A program made the translations under genes and the position numbers. The notes beneath the pieces are model-generated. The model was not told the DNA's origin. It did not search any database and worked only from the letters and a program-made list of their open reading frames with translations. Below, piece by piece: positions 8,601-42,596 of a DNA stretch of 52,872 nt; within the stretch, counting starts at the first letter, position 1; the number at the start of each line of letters is the position of its first letter. Origin of the DNA: Armatimonadota bacterium. GTDB lineage: Bacteria > Armatimonadota > DTGP01 > JAKQQT01. The stretch is from the NCBI GenBank assembly GCA_036504095.1, contig DASXVS010000010.1:1-52872 (forward strand). The letters are read 5' to 3'.

Positions 8601-10646
8601 ATGAAGATTGATCTCACACCTCCACGCGACGGTAGCGTCTACCGCGTTGGAGCGTACGTTCGGGTGTCTGTCGACGACGAGAGGAACGGCAGCCATACAT
8701 TTGAGACGCAGAGGGCCCGTATTACTGAAAAACTCGACCGGATCTACGGCAAGGGCAACTACGTCGCCGACGAGTTCATTGACAACGGCTTGTCGGGAGG
8801 ATACGGTCCGGAGCCCACTGGAAGTGAGAAACGAACCCGCCCAGGCTTCAAGAAATTCGAGACCGCACTGAAGACAGGTGCATACGACGCTATGATCGTC
8901 TATGACCTAAGCCGGTTTACACGGACGCCTCGATGGTTGGAGGTCTTCATAGACGACGTAGTTGAGCCATTTGGCATTCGGTTCATCTCCGCCAGAGAAG
9001 ACGTGGACCTGGCAACAACAGAAGGGCGGAGCATGGCCCGCTTTTTGACGCTGGGGAATACGATGTTCCGGGAGGGTTTGAAGAAACGAATACAAGACGC
9101 TGTCGACACTCGCACCTCGCAAGGCTTTCTCCATGGCAACCCGGGTTATGGTTGGGCCTGGGAGCCCATACAGAACGTTCCCATCAAGGGACGCCGCAGG
9201 ATAATTCGCAACGAGGAGCAGGGCCGCTGGGTGATCCAGATCAAGGACTGGGCTCTCGCAGGCTGGGGCACGGTTCGCATCGCGGATGAACTCAACAGAT
9301 TGGGTGTGAGGACGCCTTCAGGTAATGGCGTATGGGCCTTCGGTAGCGCTCGCAATATTCTTGACAGCGTGCATCACGCGGGGTACATCAAGCCGAGACG
9401 CGGGGAGCTGACGCGAGGCGACCACTTCGACCGTCGCTACTACGACCTTGAAGACTACGAGCGCATCCAGGCGGTCCGCCCGAAGCGCGGCGTCCACAAA
9501 CGAACCCCGCACGCCGCGAGTGAGCTCCTGAACGGAGTCGCCACTTGCGCCCGATGCGGTACACGCTTGTACATCAGTCTCTCCCGGAAAAGTGCATACC
9601 ACAGTTACCGCTGCATCACGAAGGACGAGCGCGGGAACAAGACATGTCCGAAGGTGACTGTCCGAGGGGAATCGCTCGAGGCACTGGTGATCGGGCAGTT
9701 GGAGGAGTTCGCCGGCAGCCCTGACTTCAACGATACGATCGACCGCGAGGCCGCCCGTTCGGCCACGGAGGAAGAGCAGCGGAATATCGACCGCAGAGCG
9801 CACGTTCAACGAGAACTCGAGGGGATTAGCGTCCAATTCTCCAGGTGGGCGAATATGGTGACCAGGGAACTAATCACCGAAAACCAGTTCGCCGAATTCA
9901 ACGTCGAACTCGGTTCCAAACAGTCGGCGCTGAACGCCGAGCTCTCGGACATCGAGAAGGCGCTGAGCGATCGGACTTCCCGCGAGCAGACACTGGTCCG
10001 TGTGCGCAAGGCCGTCGCGGATTTCCCCGCCGTCTGGAGGCATCTCAACCCAGACGAGCGCCGGGGAATGATCGCGCTCCTCGTCGAGCGACTTTTCGTT
10101 GACCGAGACGGAGACACGGCGACTGTAACCTTCAAGATGGCATGCCTTCCTGAGGTTGTGCTGCCCATGTCAGCGGTTCCGCCGCCCCGCAGCCGTCCAA
10201 CAGGGGTCGAAACGCTGACGCTGCGGCAACTGGCGATCCTGCAGCACCTGCGGATGGGGAAAACCCCCTCGGAGGCGGCGGATGCGATGGGCGTGACCTA
10301 CGGTTGCGTACAAATCACGCTAAGGCTGATCCGCAAGCACCTGGGCTACCACGAATTCAAGGACCTGATCGAGGTCGCGACACCCAAACTGAATGAGATG
10401 CTGCCATTCCTACCGATGGGACCCAGTGAGAAGCGTGATCCGGGCACGGTGCCAACTCTCACCGAGGCTGAGGGTCAGGTGTTCCGCCCGTTGGCGGCCG
10501 GGGCGACTTCTAAGGAAGTGGCCAGGCTCACGGGGTTCCCAAAGAAGAAAGTGGACGGCCACCGCGCGAACATCCTCCGGAAACTCGGTGCGAAGACGAT
10601 TTTCGAAGCGTCACAGAAGGCCAGACCGCTCGGGTTGCTCGCGTGA
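8601..10646 (+). CDS. Large serine recombinase with two C-terminal LuxR-like HTH segments
   Basis: A 681-residue site-specific recombinase. The resolvase catalytic domain is at about 14-165: the nucleophile is Ser23 in VGAYVRVS, followed by YDLSRFTRTPRW and the REDVDL and GRSMARF segments. A recombinase domain follows (GWGTVRIADELNRLGVRTPS), then a zinc ribbon with Cys316, Cys319, Cys338 and Cys349, and a coiled-coil region near 390-470. Such enzymes normally end after the coiled coil. Here about 150 extra residues carry two helix-turn-helix segments of LuxR/GerE character: one at about 536-580 (LRQLAILQHLRMGKTPSEAA), the other at about 618-668 (LTEAEGQVFRPLAAGATSKE, then VDGHRANILRKLGAKT). 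The tail may bind DNA or set site choice. It is probably the integrase of an element or a gene-rearranging enzyme. Confidence 0.9.
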   Translation: MKIDLTPPRDGSVYRVGAYVRVSVDDERNGSHTFETQRARITEKLDRIYGKGNYVADEFIDNGLSGGYGPEPTGSEKRTRPGFKKFETALKTGAYDAMIVYDLSRFTRTPRWLEVFIDDVVEPFGIRFISAREDVDLATTEGRSMARFLTLGNTMFREGLKKRIQDAVDTRTSQGFLHGNPGYGWAWEPIQNVPIKGRRRIIRNEEQGRWVIQIKDWALAGWGTVRIADELNRLGVRTPSGNGVWAFGSARNILDSVHHAGYIKPRRGELTRGDHFDRRYYDLEDYERIQAVRPKRGVHKRTPHAASELLNGVATCARCGTRLYISLSRKSAYHSYRCITKDERGNKTCPKVTVRGESLEALVIGQLEEFAGSPDFNDTIDREAARSATEEEQRNIDRRAHVQRELEGISVQFSRWANMVTRELITENQFAEFNVELGSKQSALNAELSDIEKALSDRTSREQTLVRVRKAVADFPAVWRHLNPDERRGMIALLVERLFVDRDGDTATVTFKMACLPEVVLPMSAVPPPRSRPTGVETLTLRQLAILQHLRMGKTPSEAADAMGVTYGCVQITLRLIRKHLGYHEFKDLIEVATPKLNEMLPFLPMGPSEKRDPGTVPTLTEAEGQVFRPLAAGATSKEVARLTGFPKKKVDGHRANILRKLGAKTIFEASQKARPLGLLA

Positions 10647-10982: not shown

Positions 10983-13900
10983 TTACGCTGCAGATGTCGA
11001 GTGCTCGAAATGGGCCGTACTCCGGCCGGTTCCGTCATCTTGCACCACGAGGCGCGTGTCGATGCGTTGCCGTAGTTCCTCGACATGCGAAATGATCCCG
11101 ACCAGACGCCCGCCCGCCTGCAGCCCCTCCAGCGTTGCGATCGTCTCGTCCAGTGCCTCGGGGTCCAGATGCCCAAAACCTTCATCAACGAAGATGGTGT
11201 CCAAACGAGCCCCGACGCTCTCCGCACAGACCACGTCGGACAGCGCAAGCGCGAGCGACAGAGCCGCCTGGAAAGTCTCACCACCGGACAGAGTATTGAC
11301 GGGGCGATCCTTTCCGGTGTGGGCGTCTTCAGCGAGGATCTCGAGGCCCGCCGATCGGCGGCGATCGGAATTGTTTAGTCCTCTTAACAATCTGTACCGT
11401 CCGCTACTCATCGCGTGCAGCCGATGAGACGCAAAATCGAGAACCTGATCAAGGTACCTGGCGAGGACCCATCGCTGAAAGGAAACCGTGCCGTTGGCAA
11501 CTTCGGCGATGTGCCCGATGACCTCACAGCGTGCCCGGCGTGCGACCACCCTGGTCTCGATCTCCTCGGCGCGGGCGATACACGAATGTAGGTTTTCGAT
11601 CTCCTGTTCCTGCGTAGCGATAGAACCCACCAAATCGTCGTGGAACCGTTCGGTCTCCTCTTTGCGGGTGAGTAGGAGGGCGAGGTTCGGGGCTTCGGTG
11701 CTGGCGGTTGCCGTCGCGGCACGTTGGGCACGATCTTCCGCGGCGAAGTAGTCGCTATCGAACTGCCGAATCTCCATTTCCAGATGAGAGAGGCTTGGAA
11801 CGCTCGCAGCGGCCAGGTCAAGGGACTCTTCATCAGCGAAGTCGGAACCCTGCATGAGGGCCTCGAGATGCTGCTGCGCCGCAGCCGCCTCAGCGGTGCG
11901 TTCGGCCATGCCTTCTGTGGTTGCTTTGAGCGCTGCGCCGGCGCGGACAACCTCAATGTGGGCGGAATGCGCGTCCGACTGAGCGGATTGCAGAGCCGTT
12001 CGCAACAATTCAGCCGATTCGTGCGCGGCGACGATGGAGTTCTCCAGGGCGGAGGCATCGGCAAACTCGGTCGGCAAGGCCCCACGACGTGCTTCAAGCA
12101 CGGCGTTGCGGCCGCTGAGATCGAGTTGTGCCGCCTCTCGCTGTTTTCCTGCCTCAGCCAAGGCAGTGGAAGCGCCTGCATGCACAGCCGTCAGGCACTG
12201 CAATTCCCCCTGAAGGGACGGCAGGCGATCCGATGCTTCCTTGGCAACGGTAACCGCGTCCCTATGCAGCGCCAGTTCGACACCGAGTTCTTCAGTGTCC
12301 TTAGGTGCCGCTGCACCGAGCGTCTTCAGCAGCGCCGCGCGTTGCTTTTGTGTCGCCGTGATTGCCTGACGTTGGTCGCGGACGTCTCCCTGGGCCACTC
12401 GCGCTGCCGCCTCCAGAGCGCGAGCGTCTGTTTCCGCCTGTGTGACGGCCGACTGTTCCGGGACGCTCTCCTCCAACGTAGCGGGAGCGGGGTGTTTGAG
12501 CGACCCGCATACCGGGCAGGGCTTGCCTTCGGTCAGGTTTCGGGCCAGCATGCCTGCGGCCCCCTCGTCCCATTGGCGCCGCCAATCGTCTGCTACATTG
12601 CGGGCTGCCGCGGCCGATTCATCAGCCGTGCTGGAGGTCGCCTCACGGTCGACCAGTTCATCCTCCTCAACAAGCAGTCTCGTTTCGACAGCATTCAGAT
12701 CCTGGCGTTGATCATAGGTTTGTTGCGCTGCCCTGAATCTCGCCTCTGCGAGGGCTAACTCGCCAGCGGCCGCGGTCGCGCCAGCCAAAGCCTTGTCGGC
12801 GGCGTTAACCGCGGCCTGGGCGGCGTGAACCCGTTCAGTATCCGTCCGCTCGACGTCCATGGCGACGTCCAATGCAGCCTGCGCGGCATCAACGGCTCGG
12901 AGCGCTTCATCTACGTCCGCTGCCGCCTTCCGAAGCCCCTCCAAATACTGGACCCTCTTGTCGGCGTCGGTTCGCTCGCCCGCCCGCGCGTTCTCCCGCT
13001 CCACAAGTGCTACCTTATCCTGCGCGACGGCCTCAGCCCGGGCCAGATTCACTTGGGCAGCGGCTACGGCCACTTGAGCAGTCTTCACCGCACCTTCCGC
13101 CTTATTCCTGGCGTCGAGCACGGGAACGACTGGCTGTGCCCGCCGGGCGGATCCCGCCGTTGCCCGGTACGCTTCGATGAGAGGAGACCGCTCCGTCACC
13201 TCCAGCAACGCTGCATCCGCCTCCGATTTCTCCGCCAACGCCGCTGCCTGACGCTGTCCTTCGGCGAGGTGGGATTGAGCCAATGCACACGCTGCCCTGG
13301 CAATCCCCAACTGCTGATTCTGATCTACCAGCGTAGCGGCCCGGAGAACTAGCCACTCGCGGTAGTCATCAACCGTGTCCTCATCCAGGACGCCACGTAA
13401 CTCATCAATGTCACTCTTGATCTCGGATTCCAGGGCCTTCTGCCGGTCGCGCAATCCCTCCTGCAGAACCCGGCATCGGTCGGTCGAGAAGAGGCGTTCG
13501 AGGATGGGCTCCCGTTCTTTCGAGGATGCGCGAAGGAAAGCTTCGAATTTCCCCTGGGGGAGCACAACCACCTGTCGGAACTGCTCCAACGTGAATCCCA
13601 GGATCTCCGCGACGCGTTCGGTCACCGTTGTTGGTCTGTCAGCGATCACGTGACCATCGCCATTGGAATTGCAATCAGTACGGTCCCACAGGATCGCCTG
13701 GGGCGGCTGGGTGGTCATACCCGCCCCCTTCTTTCGTGGCCGAGCACACTCGAGCGAGCGCCGGACACGGTATTCCTTGTTACCGTGGTTGAAGTCGAGA
13801 ACTACCTCCGTTGCCTGATCGGGGTGCGCATAATCGCTGCGCAGTTGCTCGGGCGTGCGGTCACCGCCAGACGTCCCACCATAGAGTCCAAGGCACATCG

Positions 13901-14039
13901 CGTCAAGGATTGTCGTCTTCCCGGATCCGGTCTTGCCGTGGATGAGGAACAGGAGTTCCGGGCCGAGCGCATCGAAATCGATAACGACCTCGTCGGCAAA
14001 TGGTCCAAATGCTTGCAGTGTGAGCCGGGTTGGCTTCAT
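10983..14039 (-). CDS. sbcC: Exonuclease subunit SbcC (Rad50-like ATPase)
   Basis: A 1018-residue SMC-like ATPase, the partner of SbcD in the nuclease that opens DNA hairpins and processes double-strand ends. The Rad50-type N-terminus is KPTRLTLQAFGPFADEVVID, with Walker A GKTGSGKTT at 35-43. Two long Ala/Glu/Gln-rich coiled-coil arms flank the zinc hook CPVCG at 508-512. The C-terminal lobe has the ABC signature LSGGETF near 917 and Walker B LDTIFVDEGFGHLDP. The length is normal. The ATG overlaps the sbcD stop by four bases, so the two are translated together at a matched ratio. Confidence 0.95.
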   Translation of the reverse strand: MKPTRLTLQAFGPFADEVVIDFDALGPELLFLIHGKTGSGKTTILDAMCLGLYGGTSGGDRTPEQLRSDYAHPDQATEVVLDFNHGNKEYRVRRSLECARPRKKGAGMTTQPPQAILWDRTDCNSNGDGHVIADRPTTVTERVAEILGFTLEQFRQVVVLPQGKFEAFLRASSKEREPILERLFSTDRCRVLQEGLRDRQKALESEIKSDIDELRGVLDEDTVDDYREWLVLRAATLVDQNQQLGIARAACALAQSHLAEGQRQAAALAEKSEADAALLEVTERSPLIEAYRATAGSARRAQPVVPVLDARNKAEGAVKTAQVAVAAAQVNLARAEAVAQDKVALVERENARAGERTDADKRVQYLEGLRKAAADVDEALRAVDAAQAALDVAMDVERTDTERVHAAQAAVNAADKALAGATAAAGELALAEARFRAAQQTYDQRQDLNAVETRLLVEEDELVDREATSSTADESAAAARNVADDWRRQWDEGAAGMLARNLTEGKPCPVCGSLKHPAPATLEESVPEQSAVTQAETDARALEAAARVAQGDVRDQRQAITATQKQRAALLKTLGAAAPKDTEELGVELALHRDAVTVAKEASDRLPSLQGELQCLTAVHAGASTALAEAGKQREAAQLDLSGRNAVLEARRGALPTEFADASALENSIVAAHESAELLRTALQSAQSDAHSAHIEVVRAGAALKATTEGMAERTAEAAAAQQHLEALMQGSDFADEESLDLAAASVPSLSHLEMEIRQFDSDYFAAEDRAQRAATATASTEAPNLALLLTRKEETERFHDDLVGSIATQEQEIENLHSCIARAEEIETRVVARRARCEVIGHIAEVANGTVSFQRWVLARYLDQVLDFASHRLHAMSSGRYRLLRGLNNSDRRRSAGLEILAEDAHTGKDRPVNTLSGGETFQAALSLALALSDVVCAESVGARLDTIFVDEGFGHLDPEALDETIATLEGLQAGGRLVGIISHVEELRQRIDTRLVVQDDGTGRSTAHFEHSTSAA

Positions 14040-15193
14040 AGAGTACCACCTTTCATCCCATCGTCAATTACACTGAGGAGTTCGCGTGTGTGCTCTGCTC
14101 CAATCTCGTTACCCGTTACGTCGGCGTAGAACTGCTTGAACAGGTCCTCAAGGCTCAGAATGCGGGCGTCCGCAGGCGAAATGCCGCCGAGTTCGCCCGC
14201 CACCCCAATCTCTTTTCGCCTGACGGCAAGGCAGTGTGGATACACCCCGGCCAATCGCGCCGCGGCATCGGACACGAGCGCATCGTCCGTGTAGACGATC
14301 TCCAGGTAATCGTCCGTTGGCCCATAGCGATCCGAGCGGGTGATAAGGTCGTCGAAGCGGCCCTCAATGGACCGCACGTCATGGATCGGCGTGAGCGGTT
14401 CCTGCCGTATCGTCACCATGCCTCGCTTACAGATTTCCACCACGGAAACAGACTTTTGGTGATCCTCGTGGAATGAGTACTTCAATGGTGACCCGGCGTA
14501 ATGGACATGTTGGCGCGTGCCGTGCGTTTGCGGTCTGTGCAGATGGCCCAACGCTACGTAGGAGAATCCGTTAAAGATGGACGTCGGAATCTCGCCGGCG
14601 CCCCCGACGCTGAGTTCCCGTTCGGCCTCTTCCGTGGATTGTCCGCCCGCCACGAAAGCATGGGCGACCAGTATGCAGCGCTCGCCCTCGACGAGCTTTT
14701 CGCGGGCTCGCGCAACGAGTGCCGCCATCGCCGCCTCGTGGTCGTGCAGCCCGACGGTTGAATCATCCAGCAGTTCGCGCACGACGGCCGGGTGAGTGTA
14801 CGGCAGGGCAATGACTCTGACGGGTCCGTGCCGATCGGTGACATCGAAGGCAGTGATCGCCGGGTCCAGTGGGCCGACGATATGAAGGCCCATCGACTCC
14901 AACATCCCGGAGGCGAACCCAAGGCGATCCGGGCCATCGTGATTCCCTGCGATCAACAGGACCTTGAACCCGTGATTTTGGACCAGGGTGCTCAGTACGT
15001 CGTCCAACAGGCGTACCGCCTCAGCGCCTGGGATGGCGCGGTCGTAGACATCGCCGGCGATAACAATCAGGTCGGGCTTTTCCCGGACCGCGATGCCCGT
15101 GATCCGATCCAGGACAAGGCGCTGGTCTTCGAGCAAACTTCGGCCGCAAAGCCTGCGACCGAGATGCCAATCAGCGGTGTGAAGTACTTTCAT
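14036..15193 (-). CDS. sbcD: Exonuclease subunit SbcD (Mre11-like nuclease)
   Basis: A 385-residue calcineurin-like phosphoesterase. Metal-binding motifs appear in order: HTADWHLGRRL at the N-terminus, VIAGDVYDRAIP, LIAGNHDGPDRL, LVAHAFVAGG and VALGHLHRPQ. The C-terminal part is the capping domain typical of SbcD. A good ribosome site, AAAGGAGGAC, lies six bases before the ATG at 15193. The gene follows the xre-immA pair on the same strand with about 200 bases between, where a palindrome related to the xre operator is found. Confidence 0.95.
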   Translation of the reverse strand: MKVLHTADWHLGRRLCGRSLLEDQRLVLDRITGIAVREKPDLIVIAGDVYDRAIPGAEAVRLLDDVLSTLVQNHGFKVLLIAGNHDGPDRLGFASGMLESMGLHIVGPLDPAITAFDVTDRHGPVRVIALPYTHPAVVRELLDDSTVGLHDHEAAMAALVARAREKLVEGERCILVAHAFVAGGQSTEEAERELSVGGAGEIPTSIFNGFSYVALGHLHRPQTHGTRQHVHYAGSPLKYSFHEDHQKSVSVVEICKRGMVTIRQEPLTPIHDVRSIEGRFDDLITRSDRYGPTDDYLEIVYTDDALVSDAAARLAGVYPHCLAVRRKEIGVAGELGGISPADARILSLEDLFKQFYADVTGNEIGAEHTRELLSVIDDGMKGGTL

Positions 15194-15393
15194 TATTCCG
15201 TCCTCCTTTGCGCCCAGCGTGCCAGGGCAACCAAGATGCGCGATCCTTTTACGTCCACTCGATTCTCCTTTTTGAGCCGGTCTAGTTCGGCCCTCTGTTC
15301 ACAAGACCTGCATACGCATTGTACGCTAATATGCGGATTAGCGTAGTATCGATGCAATGATGGCAGTCTTCGGAGTCGAACGACAAGGATCAT
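15193..15393 (-). CDS. Doubtful small ORF between immA and sbcD
   Basis: A 66-codon frame whose ATG overlaps the immA stop (ATGA) and whose TAA overlaps the sbcD start by one base. The C-terminal half (CRSCEQRAELDRLKKENR, then GSRILVALARWAQ) is protein-like, with a CxCxxC motif, and a GTG with an AAGGAG site inside it could start a very short peptide. However, a perfect palindrome lies in its first third, and the segment may simply be the sbcDC promoter region. I lean towards regulatory DNA. Confidence 0.3.
   Translation of the reverse strand: MILVVRLRRLPSLHRYYANPHISVQCVCRSCEQRAELDRLKKENRVDVKGSRILVALARWAQRRTE
15322..15345 (-). promoter_or_regulatory. Candidate Xre operator in front of sbcDC
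   Basis: A perfect nine-base inverted repeat (TACGCTAAT, six-base spacer, ATTAGCGTA). On the minus strand it overlaps a TACAAT hexamer that could be the -10 box of an sbcDC promoter. The half-site CGCTAAT is shared with the palindrome in front of the xre gene at 16442-16455, which points to a common repressor. Confidence 0.55.
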
Positions 15394-16106
15394 CGAACGA
15401 GGGTGGGTGTTAAACCGTGTCGCACCAGGTAGCCCAGGCGCGAAAGGCGAATTTGTGCCGCTTCGGACGAGACATTGAACATTTCGGCGATCCTTGCAGT
15501 GAGGTGCGCACCTTCAGTCGAGGATTCGTACACAGGACAAGGCATGCCGGTAGCATCCAGGTAATCAACTACGGCACGGCGAGTCCCTGTGGCAGGCATC
15601 AGGAGGGCGCCACAGCAGAACCCCGCCTGCCATTCCATCCAGTCTGATTGCTTTGCCCGTAGGATGGTGCGTCGCTGGCAGACCTGCCGATTGGTGGTCT
15701 CGGTGTCGAGGAAAAGACCCGAGGTCGGCTCTCTGCGTTCAAACAGTGGAGCATGAAAGTGTACATGCCCATACTCGTGTGCCAGCGTAGTACGAAGGCG
15801 GTGCTCGCGCTGGCTGTTCGTTGTCAGAGTAGATGCAATCTTGACGCGAGGCAGCTTTCCGCGGATGAACTCGGTCATACCTTCAACGTCCGGCCCTTCA
15901 GCGGTCAGGTCGGCATATACATCGAGGTCGTCAGCATCACATTCGATCAGGGTCGTGAGCGCATTCGTCGGCACCGGCAGCACCACCTCGCCGCAATACC
16001 GCTCCAGGTGCTGCACGATAATTGTCTCACAAAGGTGGTCGAGCTCTTCCTCTAGATAGTAAGGGCGCTGAGTGAATCGACCGGTAGCATCGTTGCACCA
16101 CTTCAA
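15390..16106 (-). CDS. ImmA/IrrE-family metallopeptidase
   Basis: A 238-residue zinc peptidase of the ImmA/IrrE (COG2856) family. The active-site helix has HEYGH at 110-114, preceded by RLRTTLAH. The downstream metal-ligand helix is in SDWMEWQAGFCCGALLMP. The C-terminal helix region (ARIAEMFNVSSEAAQIRLSR) matches the family's typical end. In known members (ImmA of ICEBs1, IrrE of Deinococcus) the enzyme cleaves a partner Xre repressor to turn genes on after DNA damage. Here the start overlaps the stop of just such an xre gene by four bases, so the pair is co-translated. sbcD and sbcC lie downstream on the same strand, which makes DNA-end processing the likely output. Confidence 0.88.
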   Translation of the reverse strand: MKWCNDATGRFTQRPYYLEEELDHLCETIIVQHLERYCGEVVLPVPTNALTTLIECDADDLDVYADLTAEGPDVEGMTEFIRGKLPRVKIASTLTTNSQREHRLRTTLAHEYGHVHFHAPLFERREPTSGLFLDTETTNRQVCQRRTILRAKQSDWMEWQAGFCCGALLMPATGTRRAVVDYLDATGMPCPVYESSTEGAHLTARIAEMFNVSSEAAQIRLSRLGYLVRHGLTPTLVR

Positions 16107-16420
16107 TGGTGGTCATCCCCTAGCGACCGGCGAAATGCCTTAAACGCTTCGCGCACCTGTCCTTGATCAACGGCGATGTCGCGGATGTCGCTTGGCAGCT
16201 GTCCGGCCAGAAAGCACAGGTACTCAACGTCCAAATCAAGTAGGACGGCGATCTGCCGCAGGAGATCCTCGGAGGGTGGGTTCCGGCGGTCGTGCTCGAT
16301 GTCGTTCAAATACTGAGGCGAGATCGGCTTACCGTCGTCCTTCATCAGTCTTGCCGCCAGGTCCTTCTGGCTCAGCAGCTTGGCCTTGCGGGCTGCCGCA
16401 ATGACTTTTCCAAATGCCAT
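16103..16420 (-). CDS. Xre-family transcriptional repressor, partner of the ImmA-like peptidase
   Basis: A 105-residue protein. The N-terminal helix-turn-helix is FGKVIAAARKAKLLSQKDLA, then ISPQYLNDIEHDRRNPPSED. The helix that follows (LLRQIAVLLDLDVEYLCFLA) continues to a short C-terminal tail that could be the cleavage and dimerisation segment. The layout resembles ImmR/DdrO-type repressors cut by ImmA/IrrE peptidases, whose gene follows with a four-base overlap. A palindrome 21 bases upstream of the ATG suggests autoregulation. Confidence 0.88.
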   Translation of the reverse strand: MAFGKVIAAARKAKLLSQKDLAARLMKDDGKPISPQYLNDIEHDRRNPPSEDLLRQIAVLLDLDVEYLCFLAGQLPSDIRDIAVDQGQVREAFKAFRRSLGDDHH

Positions 16421-16441
16421 AATGCCTCAGTATTCAGAGAT

Positions 16442-16455
16442 CCGCTGATTAGCGG
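16442..16455 (-). promoter_or_regulatory. Candidate Xre autoregulatory operator
   Basis: The palindrome CCGCTGATTAGCGG (five-base arms, four-base centre) lies upstream of the xre ATG at 16420. Read on the coding strand it contains CGCTAATC, the same eight bases found in the palindrome before sbcD. Confidence 0.5.
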
Positions 16456-17004: not shown

Positions 17005-17046
17005 GCATGGACATAGTGCTGTCCATGCGCTACCCATACCATGGGT
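17005..17046 (+). promoter_or_regulatory. Two palindromes in front of cas3
   Basis: GCATGGACA at 17005-17013 is repeated inverted at 17020-17028 around TAGTGC. A second perfect palindrome, ACCCAT-ACC-ATGGGT, occupies 17032-17046. They end 18 bases before the preferred cas3 start at 17065. The arrangement suits operator sites for a regulator of the cas operon, though no regulator gene is adjacent apart from the xre unit. Confidence 0.4.
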
Positions 17047-25100: not shown

Positions 25101-28100
25101 GTTGCACCCGGCGGAAACGCCGGGTGAGGATTGAAACATTCTTTTCATTACATTATTTCCAATTCCTTCATGTTGCACCCGGCGGAAACGCCGGGTGAGG
25201 ATTGAAACAGCGCCTGCGGGATGCCATCCTGAAGCACACCGGGAGTTGCACCCGGCGGAAACGCCGGGTGAGGATTGAAACAAGACGTGCTTTGATTACG
25301 GTCAAGACCCGCACAGGTTGCACCCGGCGGAAACGCCGGGTGAGGATTGAAACTTCCGTGCCACGATTATCCGTGTACGTCCCTGCCGGTTGCACCCGGC
25401 GGAAACGCCGGGTGAGGATTGAAACCATATCACCTCCCATCCTCAGCCGTCCTAAAGATGGTTGCACCCGGCGGAAACGCCGGGTGAGGATTGAAACCCC
25501 GCCGGCCACCACCGACCGCCTGAAACGTCTTGTGTTGCACCCGGCGGAAACGCCGGGTGAGGATTGAAACTTGACCACCCGCAAGTGGATCACAATGCCA
25601 TACAGTTGCACCCGGCGGAAACGCCGGGTGAGGATTGAAACAAGAAAATGGTTCGTGCCCTTGAGGCGGCCATGGTGTTGCACCCGGCGGAAACGCCGGG
25701 TGAGGATTGAAACAAGACGACTCAAACGTCTTGTGGACCGGTGGACGGTTGCACCCGGCGGAAACGCCGGGTGAGGATTGAAACTAACCGGACAATATCC
25801 TCGATCATCGCTCCTCGAGGGTTGCACCCGGCGGAAACGCCGGGTGAGGATTGAAACCCACCAAGGCGGTAGACACGTTTTTCGATCGACACGTTGCACC
25901 CGGCGGAAACGCCGGGTGAGGATTGAAACGAGCCAGAAAGCGCCGATCTGTGCGAAATCCCAAGTTGCACCCGGCGGAAACGCCGGGTGAGGATTGAAAC
26001 TACATCGAGCAGGACGGCTGGAGATGCAAGGTGATGTTGCACCCGGCGGAAACGCCGGGTGAGGATTGAAACATACGCATTGACCACCCCAGTCGAATAG
26101 GTGTGCGTTGCACCCGGCGGAAACGCCGGGTGAGGATTGAAACTTCCAGAGCCGAAACGACCTGTAAATCCCCAAACCACGTTGCACCCGGCGGAAACGC
26201 CGGGTGAGGATTGAAACACCCATCTCCAGATCCGGAACCGATCGAAACGCATGTTGCACCCGGCGGAAACGCCGGGTGAGGATTGAAACGCTCGATCCAA
26301 TCAGATGATCGGCGCGGGATATAGCGTTGCACCCGGCGGAAACGCCGGGTGAGGATTGAAACATCACGCTGTTCGCGTGCTCGACCAGGTCCTTGCGTTG
26401 CACCCGGCGGAAACGCCGGGTGAGGATTGAAACAGGATGCTCGATGCGGCCGCGCCGAAGACGGCCGTGTTGCACCCGGCGGAAACGCCGGGTGAGGATT
26501 GAAACGGGATTCGGTCCAGGGCCATCAACACGGCCCGTGCAGGTTGCACCCGGCGGAAACGCCGGGTGAGGATTGAAACGCTGAACGGCAAGCGAAAAAA
26601 CCCAGCGATTTACCAGTTGCACCCGGCGGAAACGCCGGGTGAGGATTGAAACGTCTTCGTCGTCCATCAGTCCGGTCAGGTCCACAAGTTGCACCCGGCG
26701 GAAACGCCGGGTGAGGATTGAAACCCGGCGTGGACGGATTCGCGCGGAGGGTACAACCAGGTTGCACCCGGCGGAAACGCCGGGTGAGGATTGAAACGTC
26801 GTTTAGGCTGTAAATCGACGTGTCCCCAGCGGTTGCACCCGGCGGAAACGCCGGGTGAGGATTGAAACCGTTTACCGACTTTATGAGGGACGGCGTTGTT
26901 GTGGTTGCACCCGGCGGAAACGCCGGGTGAGGATTGAAACATCAGCGACTGAGGCTAGCCGCTTTACATCGTCACGTTGCACCCGGCGGAAACGCCGGGT
27001 GAGGATTGAAACCTGTTCGGACTCGTCCCGTCGTCCAGGCTTCGCTGTGTTGCACCCGGCGGAAACGCCGGGTGAGGATTGAAACTCGTGTGGTCTCTCC
27101 TGCGGGGCGGTGGACGCATCGTTGCACCCGGCGGAAACGCCGGGTGAGGATTGAAACATCGTGAGCACTTGGATTAGCAGCTCGCCCCCGCTCCGTTGCA
27201 CCCGGCGGAAACGCCGGGTGAGGATTGAAACGCTGTCCGTCGGCCACGGTGCCGGCGCGCTATCGTCGGTTGCACCCGGCGGAAACGCCGGGTGAGGATT
27301 GAAACGTCCCGCTGCGCCTGTGGCCGCTCTTGGGCAGGAGCCGTTGCACCCGGCGGAAACGCCGGGTGAGGATTGAAACCCGGAATCCAAGTCGAACATC
27401 TTAAACGTAGCGTGCGTTGCACCCGGCGGAAACGCCGGGTGAGGATTGAAACACAGAACAGCGATGGACACGCTCCGGCAATCCGGGTTGCACCCGGCGG
27501 AAACGCCGGGTGAGGATTGAAACATAGTCTCAATGATTGGATTCGTACGAGGTAGGGGTTGCACCCGGCGGAAACGCCGGGTGAGGATTGAAACCTAAGG
27601 CTCGATGATTGGCTCCCGGTGGCATCATTGTTGCACCCGGCGGAAACGCCGGGTGAGGATTGAAACGCTTTGATCGCGGCATAGATGTTGGGGGTCGCCG
27701 GCGTTGCACCCGGCGGAAACGCCGGGTGAGGATTGAAACTCCTATACCGTTGCCGGGTATACCGATACGGCCGTTGCACCCGGCGGAAACGCCGGGTGAG
27801 GATTGAAACCACTGGAAAGCGCAACCGGCGGTAAGCCATCCATGTGTTGCACCCGGCGGAAACGCCGGGTGAGGATTGAAACACCGTCTCCGCAGCCGGG
27901 GCTGGCGCGTTTGCGTCGTTGCACCCGGCGGAAACGCCGGGTGAGGATTGTAACTTTCGCAGGGTCCGTCCAAGATACGGGGCAAACGAGTTGCACCCGG
28001 CGGAAACGCCGGGTGAGGATTGAAACCCGCCGGACAACGCGCGGGCGTTCGCCGCGGCCCTCGTTGCACCCGGCGGAAACGCCGGGTGAGGATTGAAACT

Positions 28101-29290
28101 AGCACAACGGTGGGTTTTACGCAACGGCGAGCGGCGTTGCACCCGGCGGAAACGCCGGGTGAGGATTGAAACTTCTGCGTCGTTGGGTGTCGCGTGCGTG
28201 GTATGAGGGTTGCACCCGGCGGAAACGCCGGGTGAGGATTGAAACGGGATCGCTTTGTTTTTGCTCTTTTTGGCCGCGTATGTTGCACCCGGCGGAAACG
28301 CCGGGTGAGGATTGAAACGTCTGCTTGTGGGGTTGTTCAAGTGGCTTGCCGACGCGTTGCACCCGGCGGAAACGCCGGGTGAGGATTGAAACGGCTTCAT
28401 CAGTTATCTAAAAGGGCGGGTGACTGTATGTTGCACCCGGCGGAAACGCCGGGTGAGGATTGAAACAAACGTTCGAGGATGGCGGGAATCGTGTGCTCCT
28501 CGCGTTGCACCCGGCGGAAACGCCGGGTGAGGATTGAAACTGGAGATGGAGGCGCACATACTGCGTATCGTAGCGTTGCACCCGGCGGAAACGCCGGGTG
28601 AGGATTGAAACATAGAGGATGGCGGCGGGGTGTTCCGCCGGGTTGGTTGCACCCGGCGGAAACGCCGGGTGAGGATTGAAACGGCCGTCGCTTGCACGTC
28701 GAACGATTCATAGTTACGTTGCACCCGGCGGAAACGCCGGGTGAGGATTGAAACAACATGGCGACGGTAACGCCTCCGGCGGCGTAGGCGGTTGCACCCG
28801 GCGGAAACGCCGGGTGAGGATTGAAACAAACTCTTCCGGCGACCGCGCAAACAACGCACAGGTTGCACCCGGCGGAAACGCCGGGTGAGGATTGAAACAA
28901 GCTCGGTGGAGATGAACGGGTGCGCGGCCCTTGCGTTGCACCCGGCGGAAACGCCGGGTGAGGATTGAAACGGCTTTGAATGAGTGCAACCCCCCTTCCC
29001 GCCTGTAGTTGCACCCGGCGGAAACGCCGGGTGAGGATTGAAACGATTACGTGTATGAATCCCTACTCAAATACCCCGATGTTGCACCCGGCGGAAACGC
29101 CGGGTGAGGATTGAAACAAGTACCGTGACGTCTTAGCGAAACTGTACCCGGGTTGCACCCGGCGGAAACGCCGGGTGAGGATTGAAACATACCAGACGGG
29201 TTCGTCGCTTACGGGCATGAATGTTGCTTCCGATGTAAACCCCTTGCGCGCTTGCTGCATCGGGCCCTCGAGTCCGGTGAGGACTGAAAC
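25101..29290 (+). CRISPR. Type I-C CRISPR array, 57 full 37-nt repeats and one degenerate terminal repeat
   Basis: Repeats start at 25101 and recur every 70-74 bases up to 29152-29188, giving 56 spacers of 33-37 nt. The 37-nt repeat begins GTTGCACCCGGCG and ends GGTGAGGATTGAAAC. Its centre is a perfect nine-pair stem (CACCCGGCG with CGCCGGGTG) closed by a GAAA tetraloop, leaving the ATTGAAAC handle typical of subtype I-C crRNA. I saw one internal variant: the repeat at 27918-27954 has T for A near its 3' end. The last recognisable repeat (29254-29290) is the same length but heavily changed in its first half, and is separated from its neighbour by 65 nt. The array runs away from cas2. Confidence 0.98.
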
Positions 29291-42558: not shown

Positions 42559-42596
42559 GAATACGTATTCGAATACGTATTCACAATGATAGTATA
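42559..42596 (-). promoter_or_regulatory. Tandem LacI operators and -10 box before lacI
   Basis: GAATACGTATTC occurs twice head to tail (42559-42570 and 42571-42582) without a gap. On the minus strand a TATACT hexamer (42591-42596) sits just upstream, so the operators overlap the transcription start. A related single site precedes the prepilin gene at 39282. Confidence 0.8.

What the first reader, a model, noticed from the sequence alone, without database searches (positions are those of the whole stretch)
14036..16455. Xre repressor + ImmA/IrrE peptidase wired to SbcD-SbcC, with a shared operator half-site
Seen: xre and immA overlap by four bases, and sbcD and sbcC follow on the same strand. 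The half-site CGCTAATC occurs in a palindrome before xre (16442-16455) and in a second palindrome before sbcD (15322-15345). Known: in Deinococcus IrrE cleaves the Xre repressor DdrO after DNA damage, and in ICEBs1 ImmA cleaves ImmR. Inference: this is a compact IrrE/DdrO-like switch whose direct output is a hairpin/double-strand-break nuclease, placed between a recombinase and a CRISPR locus. It could be a damage response or an anti-phage module that senses end-processing stress. I do not know of a described Xre-ImmA-SbcDC operon.
Basis: partly seen in the sequence, partly recalled or inferred. Interest (0 to 1): 0.75.

Follow-up and report, generated by a model that had tools for sequence, protein, structure and literature searches.

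The report
Damage-sensing switch controlling a DNA-end nuclease
A bacterial genome island carries a repressor-and-protease pair of the kind that turns immune genes on when DNA is damaged, here wired through conserved DNA binding sites to the DNA-end-cutting nuclease SbcCD, which suggests that mobile copies of this "repair" nuclease are run as an emergency or anti-phage response.

Summary
The operators are real: a weight matrix trained only on other genomes ranks the xre promoter 1st, and two overlapping sites in the sbcD promoter 2nd and 3rd, in the whole 52.9-kb window. The Xre-ImmA subfamily occurs in Pseudomonadota, Acidobacteria, plasmids and prophages. It usually carries the same operator before xre and about 50 bp after immA, but the genes it drives differ, often a ubiquitin-like (Bub) operon. 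It is a portable controller. Its nearest known relative is CapH+CapP, the ssDNA-activated protease/repressor pair of CBASS (modelled ImmA matches CapP best, Z 15.0). SbcDC is a new cargo. Independent support: all 37 alphaproteobacterial plasmid SbcDC operons listed carry a divergent CapW/BrxR repressor, another ssDNA-sensing controller family, and a second genome of the same phylum has a distant Xre-ImmA pair ahead of HerA-like, SbcD and SbcC genes. Binding, cleavage, the ssDNA signal and an anti-phage role are inferred, not shown. New variant of a known kind.

The parts
16103..16420 (-). xre: CapH-like HTH repressor, 105 aa; recognition region QYLNDIEHDRR; C-terminal helix with invariant Phe96-Arg97 (predicted cleavage/dimer region)
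   Evidence: Pfam HTH_3; alignments A1/A6; PADLOC capH weak 6e-4; model resembles DdrO, SinR, ImmR and CapH HTH domains
15390..16106 (-). immA: CapP-like M78 metallopeptidase, 238 aa, H110-E111-YG-H114 and invariant E158, TTG start overlapping xre by 4 bases
   Evidence: Pfam M78; PADLOC capP 5.6e-9; AlphaFold pLDDT 85.7, best match CapP 7t5t Z 15.0; invariant columns
16442..16455 (.). operator 1, 14-bp palindrome before xre, core CGCTGATTAGCG 16443-16454
   Evidence: rank 1 in window by weight matrix trained on other loci; conserved upstream of xre in relatives
15322..15345 (.). operator 2, 24-bp palindrome before sbcD, two overlapping core sites (15324-15335, 15332-15343), half-site 46 nt after immA stop
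   Evidence: ranks 2 and 3 in window; only one wide palindrome of this kind with CGCTAAT in both arms in the genome, two looser others at about chance level; same place in relatives
14036..15193 (-). sbcD: Mre11-family nuclease subunit, 385 aa, metal-ligand residues D8 H10 D48 N84 H178 H217 H219 conserved
   Evidence: TIGR00619 176.9 bits over cut-off; alignment A4; PDB SbcD structures
10983..14039 (-). sbcC: Rad50-family ATPase, 1018 aa, with Walker A, CPVC zinc hook, LSGG signature and Walker B in the sequence
   Evidence: Pfam AAA_23 and SbcC_Walker_B; NCBIfam sbcc; sequence
15193..15258 (-). possible 21-aa reading frame from GTG with ribosome-binding site AAGGAG, its stop overlapping the sbcD start (TAATG); may be a coupling leader
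   Evidence: sequence only; no family match of the enclosing frame

Best explanation
xre-immA is a portable CapH+CapP-type control module that has taken an accessory sbcD-sbcC operon as its output. In the resting cell Xre binds the single core site before xre and the doubled site before sbcD, keeping itself low and sbcDC nearly off. When single-stranded DNA accumulates (phage attack, broken forks), the ImmA peptidase is activated and cuts Xre in its C-terminal region (probably near the invariant Phe-Arg), so both promoters open and SbcDC is made; it then attacks DNA ends, hairpins or protein-blocked ends of the invader or of the damaged chromosome. Because SbcDC itself makes or removes ssDNA at ends, the output may feed back on the signal. 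Shown by sequence: gene identities, intact active sites, conserved paired operators, exchangeable cargo. Inferred: Xre binding, cleavage, ssDNA activation, benefit to the cell.
For: (1) Operators: training on other genomes finds the window's three sites first; enrichment P about 1e-26 and 1e-29; a same-phylum relative with ImmA 41% identical and different cargo has almost the same 24-bp site, TATGCTAATACGCATATTAGCATA (L137). (2) The pair is a module: same xre-immA with Bub-like (E2/ThiF E1/DUF6527), DUF3892, DUF6791-ThiF or unknown cargo, usually after a gap of about 100-200 bp with the operator. (3) CapP is the best structural match (Z 15.0; IrrE/PprI 10.4-11.3); PADLOC capP. CapH+CapP are reported as ssDNA-activated controllers of CBASS, Bub and other operons (PMC13373217); PprI is likewise activated by ssDNA (PMC10904395). 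(4) The same cargo under other damage controllers: 37/37 alphaproteobacterial plasmid sbcD genes have a divergent CapW/BrxR homologue 70-93 bp away (CapW 2e-43); L267 has Xre-ImmA-HerA-like-220aa-SbcD-SbcC. (5) sbcDC is accessory: the only SbcD in the genome, not found in the same-family and same-class genomes, third-position GC 0.67-0.70 against 0.76-0.84 in the flanking core.
Against: This exact xre-immA-sbcDC order was found once; no close relative repeats it. Sequence similarity to the solved CapP is weak (E 0.92) and to capH is weak. A scan found no sigma-70 promoter consensus in either region, so where the operators sit relative to the promoters is unknown. No expression, binding, cleavage or phage data exist. 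sbcD starts about 129 bp after operator 2, further than most cargo genes.
Confidence: 0.78

Rival explanations
1. Chance or relic: the controller lost its original cargo (for example a Bub operon) and sbcDC landed behind it in a rearranging island, without meaningful regulation.
For: Only one instance; island full of transposase relics; sbcD starts further from operator 2 than usual cargo.
Against: Operator 2 is intact, doubled and in the standard place. Two of six clear SbcD genes in the phylum follow an Xre-ImmA pair, although these genomes hold only 0-4 M78 genes each. CapW-SbcDC is an independent parallel.
Confidence: 0.1
2. Mobile-element immunity switch: xre-immA is the repressor/anti-repressor of a resident element (as ImmR/ImmA of ICEBs1), and sbcDC is an element gene for its own replication or excision.
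For: A serine recombinase lies beside sbcC; in IMG/VR prophages the same pair often lies near a serine recombinase and replication genes.
Against: No conjugation, replication or phage structural genes seen in the window; in plasmids and chromosomes the same pair drives Bub-type operons.
Confidence: 0.08
3. CRISPR helper: the switch and SbcDC serve the adjacent type I-C system by processing DNA ends into spacer precursors when phage damage is sensed.
For: sbcDC-xre lie next to cas3-cas5-cas8c-cas7-cas4; SbcCD and RecBCD are redundantly needed for primed adaptation in E. coli (PMC6896009).
Against: No operator upstream of cas3; relatives of the pair and mobile SbcDC loci examined are not beside cas genes.
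Confidence: 0.08
4. Ordinary host DNA-repair response: a host-beneficial, LexA-independent damage regulon of one operon, without a specific role against phages (same switch, different purpose; overlaps with the best explanation).
For: Myxococcus SbcC1D1 is induced by mitomycin C independently of LexA (PMC12288472); it is the only SbcD in this genome.
Against: Island location, composition and mobile relatives; SbcD not found in the closest genomes; controller family otherwise sits before immune-like operons.
Confidence: 0.25

Closest known systems
CapH+CapP (CBASS-associated helix-turn-helix and peptidase; 'controllers of adjacent pathways')
   Same: HTH repressor plus M78 peptidase gene pair upstream of a replaceable operon; CapP is the best structural match of ImmA; intact HEXXH; operator between the pair and the cargo; also used before Bub operons.
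   Different: Sequence distant (20% identity over the aligned structure); cargo is SbcDC, which I did not find described; ssDNA activation and cleavage untested here.
IrrE/PprI-DdrO of Deinococcus
   Same: M78 protease and Xre repressor; DNA-damage logic likely.
   Different: No GAF-like C-terminal domain; acts on its own locus, not on a genome-wide regulon; two adjacent genes with cargo.
ImmA-ImmR of ICEBs1
   Same: Overlapping Xre/M78 pair on an acquired island.
   Different: No excision or transfer genes seen under it in the window.
CapW/BrxR (WYL repressors of CBASS/BREX)
   Same: Controls, by position, the same cargo, SbcDC, on alphaproteobacterial plasmids (found here).
   Different: Unrelated protein family; single divergent gene; not in the window.
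CapK+CapS
   Same: Two-gene damage controller with two binding sites in its own region, upstream of exchangeable immune operons.
   Different: Kinase/STAS-wHTH proteins, unrelated by sequence.
E. coli SbcCD (Mre11-Rad50)
   Same: Full domain set and catalytic residues.
   Different: Here accessory and behind a controller; E. coli SbcCD is a core gene pair.

Membership tests
CapH+CapP control module | HTH repressor gene overlapping or adjoining an M78 peptidase gene, upstream of another operon on the same strand | tested here: met
CapH+CapP control module | Peptidase with CapP fold and HEXXH zinc site | tested here: met
   Best structural match 7t5t, Z 15.0, 176 residues, rmsd 4.2; HEYGH and E158 invariant; PADLOC capP 5.6e-9
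CapH+CapP control module | Repressor of the CapH family | tested here: inconclusive
   HTH domain similar to CapH (7t5u TMt 0.85) but equally to SinR, ImmR, DdrO; PADLOC capH only 6e-4
CapH+CapP control module | Repressor sites at its own and the cargo promoter | tested here: met
   Sequence level only; binding not assayed
CapH+CapP control module | ssDNA-stimulated cleavage of the repressor | not testable with these tools
   Needs purified proteins
CapH+CapP control module | Cargo is an immune operon | tested here: inconclusive
   Cargo is SbcDC in a CRISPR-bearing island; protection not testable
IrrE/DdrO | Protease with C-terminal GAF-like sensor domain | tested here: not met
   238-aa protein; the model ends after the helical/HTH part
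IrrE/DdrO | Repressor controls many dispersed damage genes by a shared motif | tested here: not met
   Wide palindromes: one at sbcD, two others, against one for the reversed control pattern, in the whole genome
ImmR/ImmA of ICEs | Controls excision/transfer genes of an integrative element | tested here: inconclusive
   Serine recombinase nearby but no transfer genes recognised and no operator found near it
SbcCD | SbcD metallophosphatase motifs and C-terminal domain; SbcC Walker A/B, signature, zinc hook | tested here: met
CapW/BrxR-SbcDC | Divergent WYL repressor next to sbcD | tested here: not met
   No WYL gene near the window's sbcD; the plasmid loci have it

The most novel reading that the evidence does not exclude
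Mobile SbcDC operons form an unrecognised, inducible anti-phage/anti-plasmid system. Their defining trait is not the nuclease, which is shared with host repair, but an adjacent ssDNA-sensing controller, taken independently from the CapH+CapP, CapW/BrxR and other Xre-ImmA families. Because the nuclease makes or destroys the ssDNA the controller senses, the operon is a self-amplifying or self-limiting circuit.
Probability: 0.45. Interest if true: 0.75.

Novelty: new variant of a known kind. Interest (0 to 1): 0.62.

Why it matters
SbcCD/Mre11-Rad50 is usually treated as a core repair complex, though phages encode inhibitors of it (lambda Gam, N15 TelN; PMC12624138). Finding accessory copies placed, in unrelated lineages, behind two unrelated controller families known to release immune operons on ssDNA gives a concrete, testable case that mobile SbcDC is run as a defence or emergency response. 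It extends the controller/cargo modularity known for CBASS, BREX and Bub to a DNA-end nuclease, and sets up a direct test of feedback between the signal (ssDNA) and the output (end processing). The operator consensus CGCTRATYNGCG can also be used to find more cargoes of this controller subfamily.

Tried and rejected
The 8-mer CGCTAATC alone: three in the window, not significant; one copy at 9824 lies in the recombinase gene and was dropped. Close search with the window SbcD in IMG/VR gave only distant phage nucleases. ImmA in the phage collection: only distant 24-34% matches. Solved-structure sequence search for ImmA: CapP only at E 0.92, so the fold comparison was used instead. The phylum search found 6 clear SbcD genes: L268/L269 look like housekeeping loci, L266 unclear, and L265 (G252, strongest) has a contig end 364 bp upstream, so its controller, if any, is unseen. 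Shared operator with cas3: none found. Other genome-wide operator sites: at about the chance level. Plasmid SbcDC of Salinibacter, Priestia and Deinococcus showed no CapW or Xre-ImmA next to it, so a controller is not universal. Lau et al. 2022 and two other papers on these controllers are not held, so an earlier mention of an SbcDC cargo cannot be excluded.
Full report
What is there. On the minus strand, xre (16420-16103), immA (16106-15390), sbcD (15193-14036) and sbcC (14039-10983) follow one another; xre/immA and sbcD/sbcC each overlap by four bases. Pfam and NCBIfam identify an HTH_3 repressor, an M78 (ImmA/IrrE) peptidase, an SbcD over its family cut-off and an SbcC/Rad50 ATPase. Active-site residues are intact: HEYGH and E158 in ImmA, the Mre11 metal ligands in SbcD, and Walker, signature and CPVC hook motifs in SbcC. 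The island also holds a serine recombinase (8601-10646), transposase relics and a type I-C CRISPR locus, and has lower third-position GC (about 0.60-0.74) than the flanking core genes (0.76-0.84). This SbcD is the only one in the genome, and SbcD was not found in the same-family and same-class genomes searched.

Are the operators real? Relatives settle the question. In 41 dereplicated loci with this Xre-ImmA pair (the window is one), CGCTRAT/ATYAGCG occurs at 5.8 per kb in the 130 bp before xre and 4.8 per kb in the 200 bp after immA, against 0.38 per kb elsewhere in the same loci (P about 6e-26 and 5e-29; the prophage loci are not fully independent, so read these as very strong rather than exact). 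A 12-bp weight matrix trained on 43 sites from other loci, the window excluded, then ranked the window: 16443-16454 before xre was first, the two overlapping sites 15332-15343 and 15324-15335 before sbcD were second and third, and a fourth lies just inside sbcD (15165-15176). The site in the gap lies 46 nt after the immA stop, against about 50 nt in many relatives. A same-phylum relative (L137) with ImmA 41% identical and different cargo carries nearly the same 24-bp palindrome. In the whole genome the wide palindrome occurs at sbcD and at two other places, close to the chance level: a local switch, not a regulon.

What kind of module is it? ImmA relatives at 45-50% identity occur on plasmids of Nitrosospira, Paraburkholderia and Rhizobium, in Pseudomonadota and Acidobacteria genomes and in IMG/VR prophage-like contigs. 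The xre-immA pair and its gap operator stay; the cargo changes: DUF2188 plus multiubiquitin/E2/ThiF/DUF6527 operons, DUF6791-ThiF, DUF3892, or an unknown 395-aa + 317-aa pair. Published work describes such ubiquitination-like sets as Bub operons and states that 219 of 544 are preceded by CapW or CapH+CapP, controllers that respond to DNA damage; CapP is activated by ssDNA and cuts CapH (PMC13373217). That the ubiquitin-like cargoes seen here are Bub operons is my assignment from their gene content. The predicted ImmA structure (pLDDT 85.7) matches CapP best (Z 15.0, 176 residues, 20% identity), ahead of IrrE/PprI (10.4-11.3). PADLOC gives capP 5.6e-9 and a weak capH match. I therefore read the pair as a CapH+CapP-type controller; its repressor is too generic in sequence for a firm family assignment.

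Is SbcDC a sensible cargo? Two independent parallels say yes. First, plasmid SbcDC: of 37 alphaproteobacterial plasmid records with the best sbcD matches, all 37 have a divergent WYL gene 70-93 bp away. The WYL protein is a CapW/BrxR homologue (2e-43 to CapW), and the intergenic regions share a TTGACT promoter box and, in several, a TATACGTATA-like palindrome, as for CapW at CBASS promoters (PMC9122588). Two IMG/VR contigs show the same arrangement (L187, L189). Second, L267, in another genome of the phylum, has a distantly related Xre-ImmA pair followed by a HerA-like ATPase, a 220-aa protein, SbcD and SbcC, with a different palindrome in the gap. Two of six clear SbcD genes in the phylum thus follow an Xre-ImmA pair, although these genomes carry only 0-4 M78 genes each. 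In three prophage contigs a more distant SbcD/SbcC-like pair is divergent from xre-immA.

Mechanism proposed. Rest: Xre holds both promoters, with the doubled site giving firmer control of sbcDC (inference). Signal: ssDNA, by analogy with CapP and PprI (PMC13373217; PMC10904395). Switch: ImmA cuts Xre in its C-terminal part; the Phe-Arg invariant in every aligned Xre is the likely region, resembling the Leu-Arg of the DdrO cleavage loop (inference). Output: SbcDC processes DNA ends, hairpins and blocked ends. SbcCD acting against phage DNA has support: Gam and TelN counter it (PMC12624138). Damage induction of SbcCD without LexA is known in Myxococcus (PMC12288472). Whether the benefit is defence, repair or help to CRISPR adaptation (PMC6896009) is open; I lean to defence or emergency response.

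Novelty and limits. I found no paper describing SbcDC under CapH+CapP or CapW, but key papers are not held. The exact order xre-immA-sbcDC of this subfamily was found once. Nothing about binding, cleavage or phage resistance was measured. Verdict: observation confirmed; interpretation partly supported, with the controller re-assigned to the CapH+CapP kind; new variant of a known kind, with a plausible wider class of controller-run mobile SbcDC operons.

Noticed in passing
L150, L151, L152, L155, L156, L157 (intergenic 70-80 bp): Plasmid SbcDC operons of Alphaproteobacteria share a divergent CapW/BrxR gene and a conserved TTGACT box, several with a TATACGTATA-like palindrome (37 of 37 best-matching records have the gene pair).
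   Followed up: yes
L267:3265-11229: Xre-ImmA pair followed by HerA-like ATPase, 220-aa protein, SbcD, SbcC and a 305-aa protein, with palindrome CAGTGCGCACTG in the gap and a divergent HsdR-like helicase; possibly another defence operon.
   Followed up: partly
L061:8825-11195 and many other IMG/VR loci (L045-L092): Cassette xre-immA-(DUF2188)-395 aa-317 aa in prophage-like contigs; the two larger proteins have no Pfam, PADLOC or NCBIfam match.
   Followed up: partly
L046:3-2161, L061:2885-7536, L056: SbcD-like and AAA_27 (YhaN-like) pair divergent from xre-immA, about 100 bp from its promoter in L061.
   Followed up: partly
window 15193-15258 minus: Possible 21-aa leader with a ribosome-binding site, its stop overlapping the sbcD start.
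   Followed up: no
window 42559-42582: Two abutting GAATACGTATTC palindromes just upstream of a LacI-type regulator gene (42546-41542), a likely operator.
   Followed up: no
window 8601-10646: Large serine recombinase with an added C-terminal LuxR-type HTH (GerE) domain, an unusual combination.
   Followed up: no
window 17005-17028: Perfect 9-bp-arm inverted repeat GCATGGACA...TGTCCATGC just before cas3, a possible cas operon control site.
   Followed up: no
window 25105-29177: Long type I-C CRISPR array, dozens of repeats spaced 70-74 bp.
   Followed up: no
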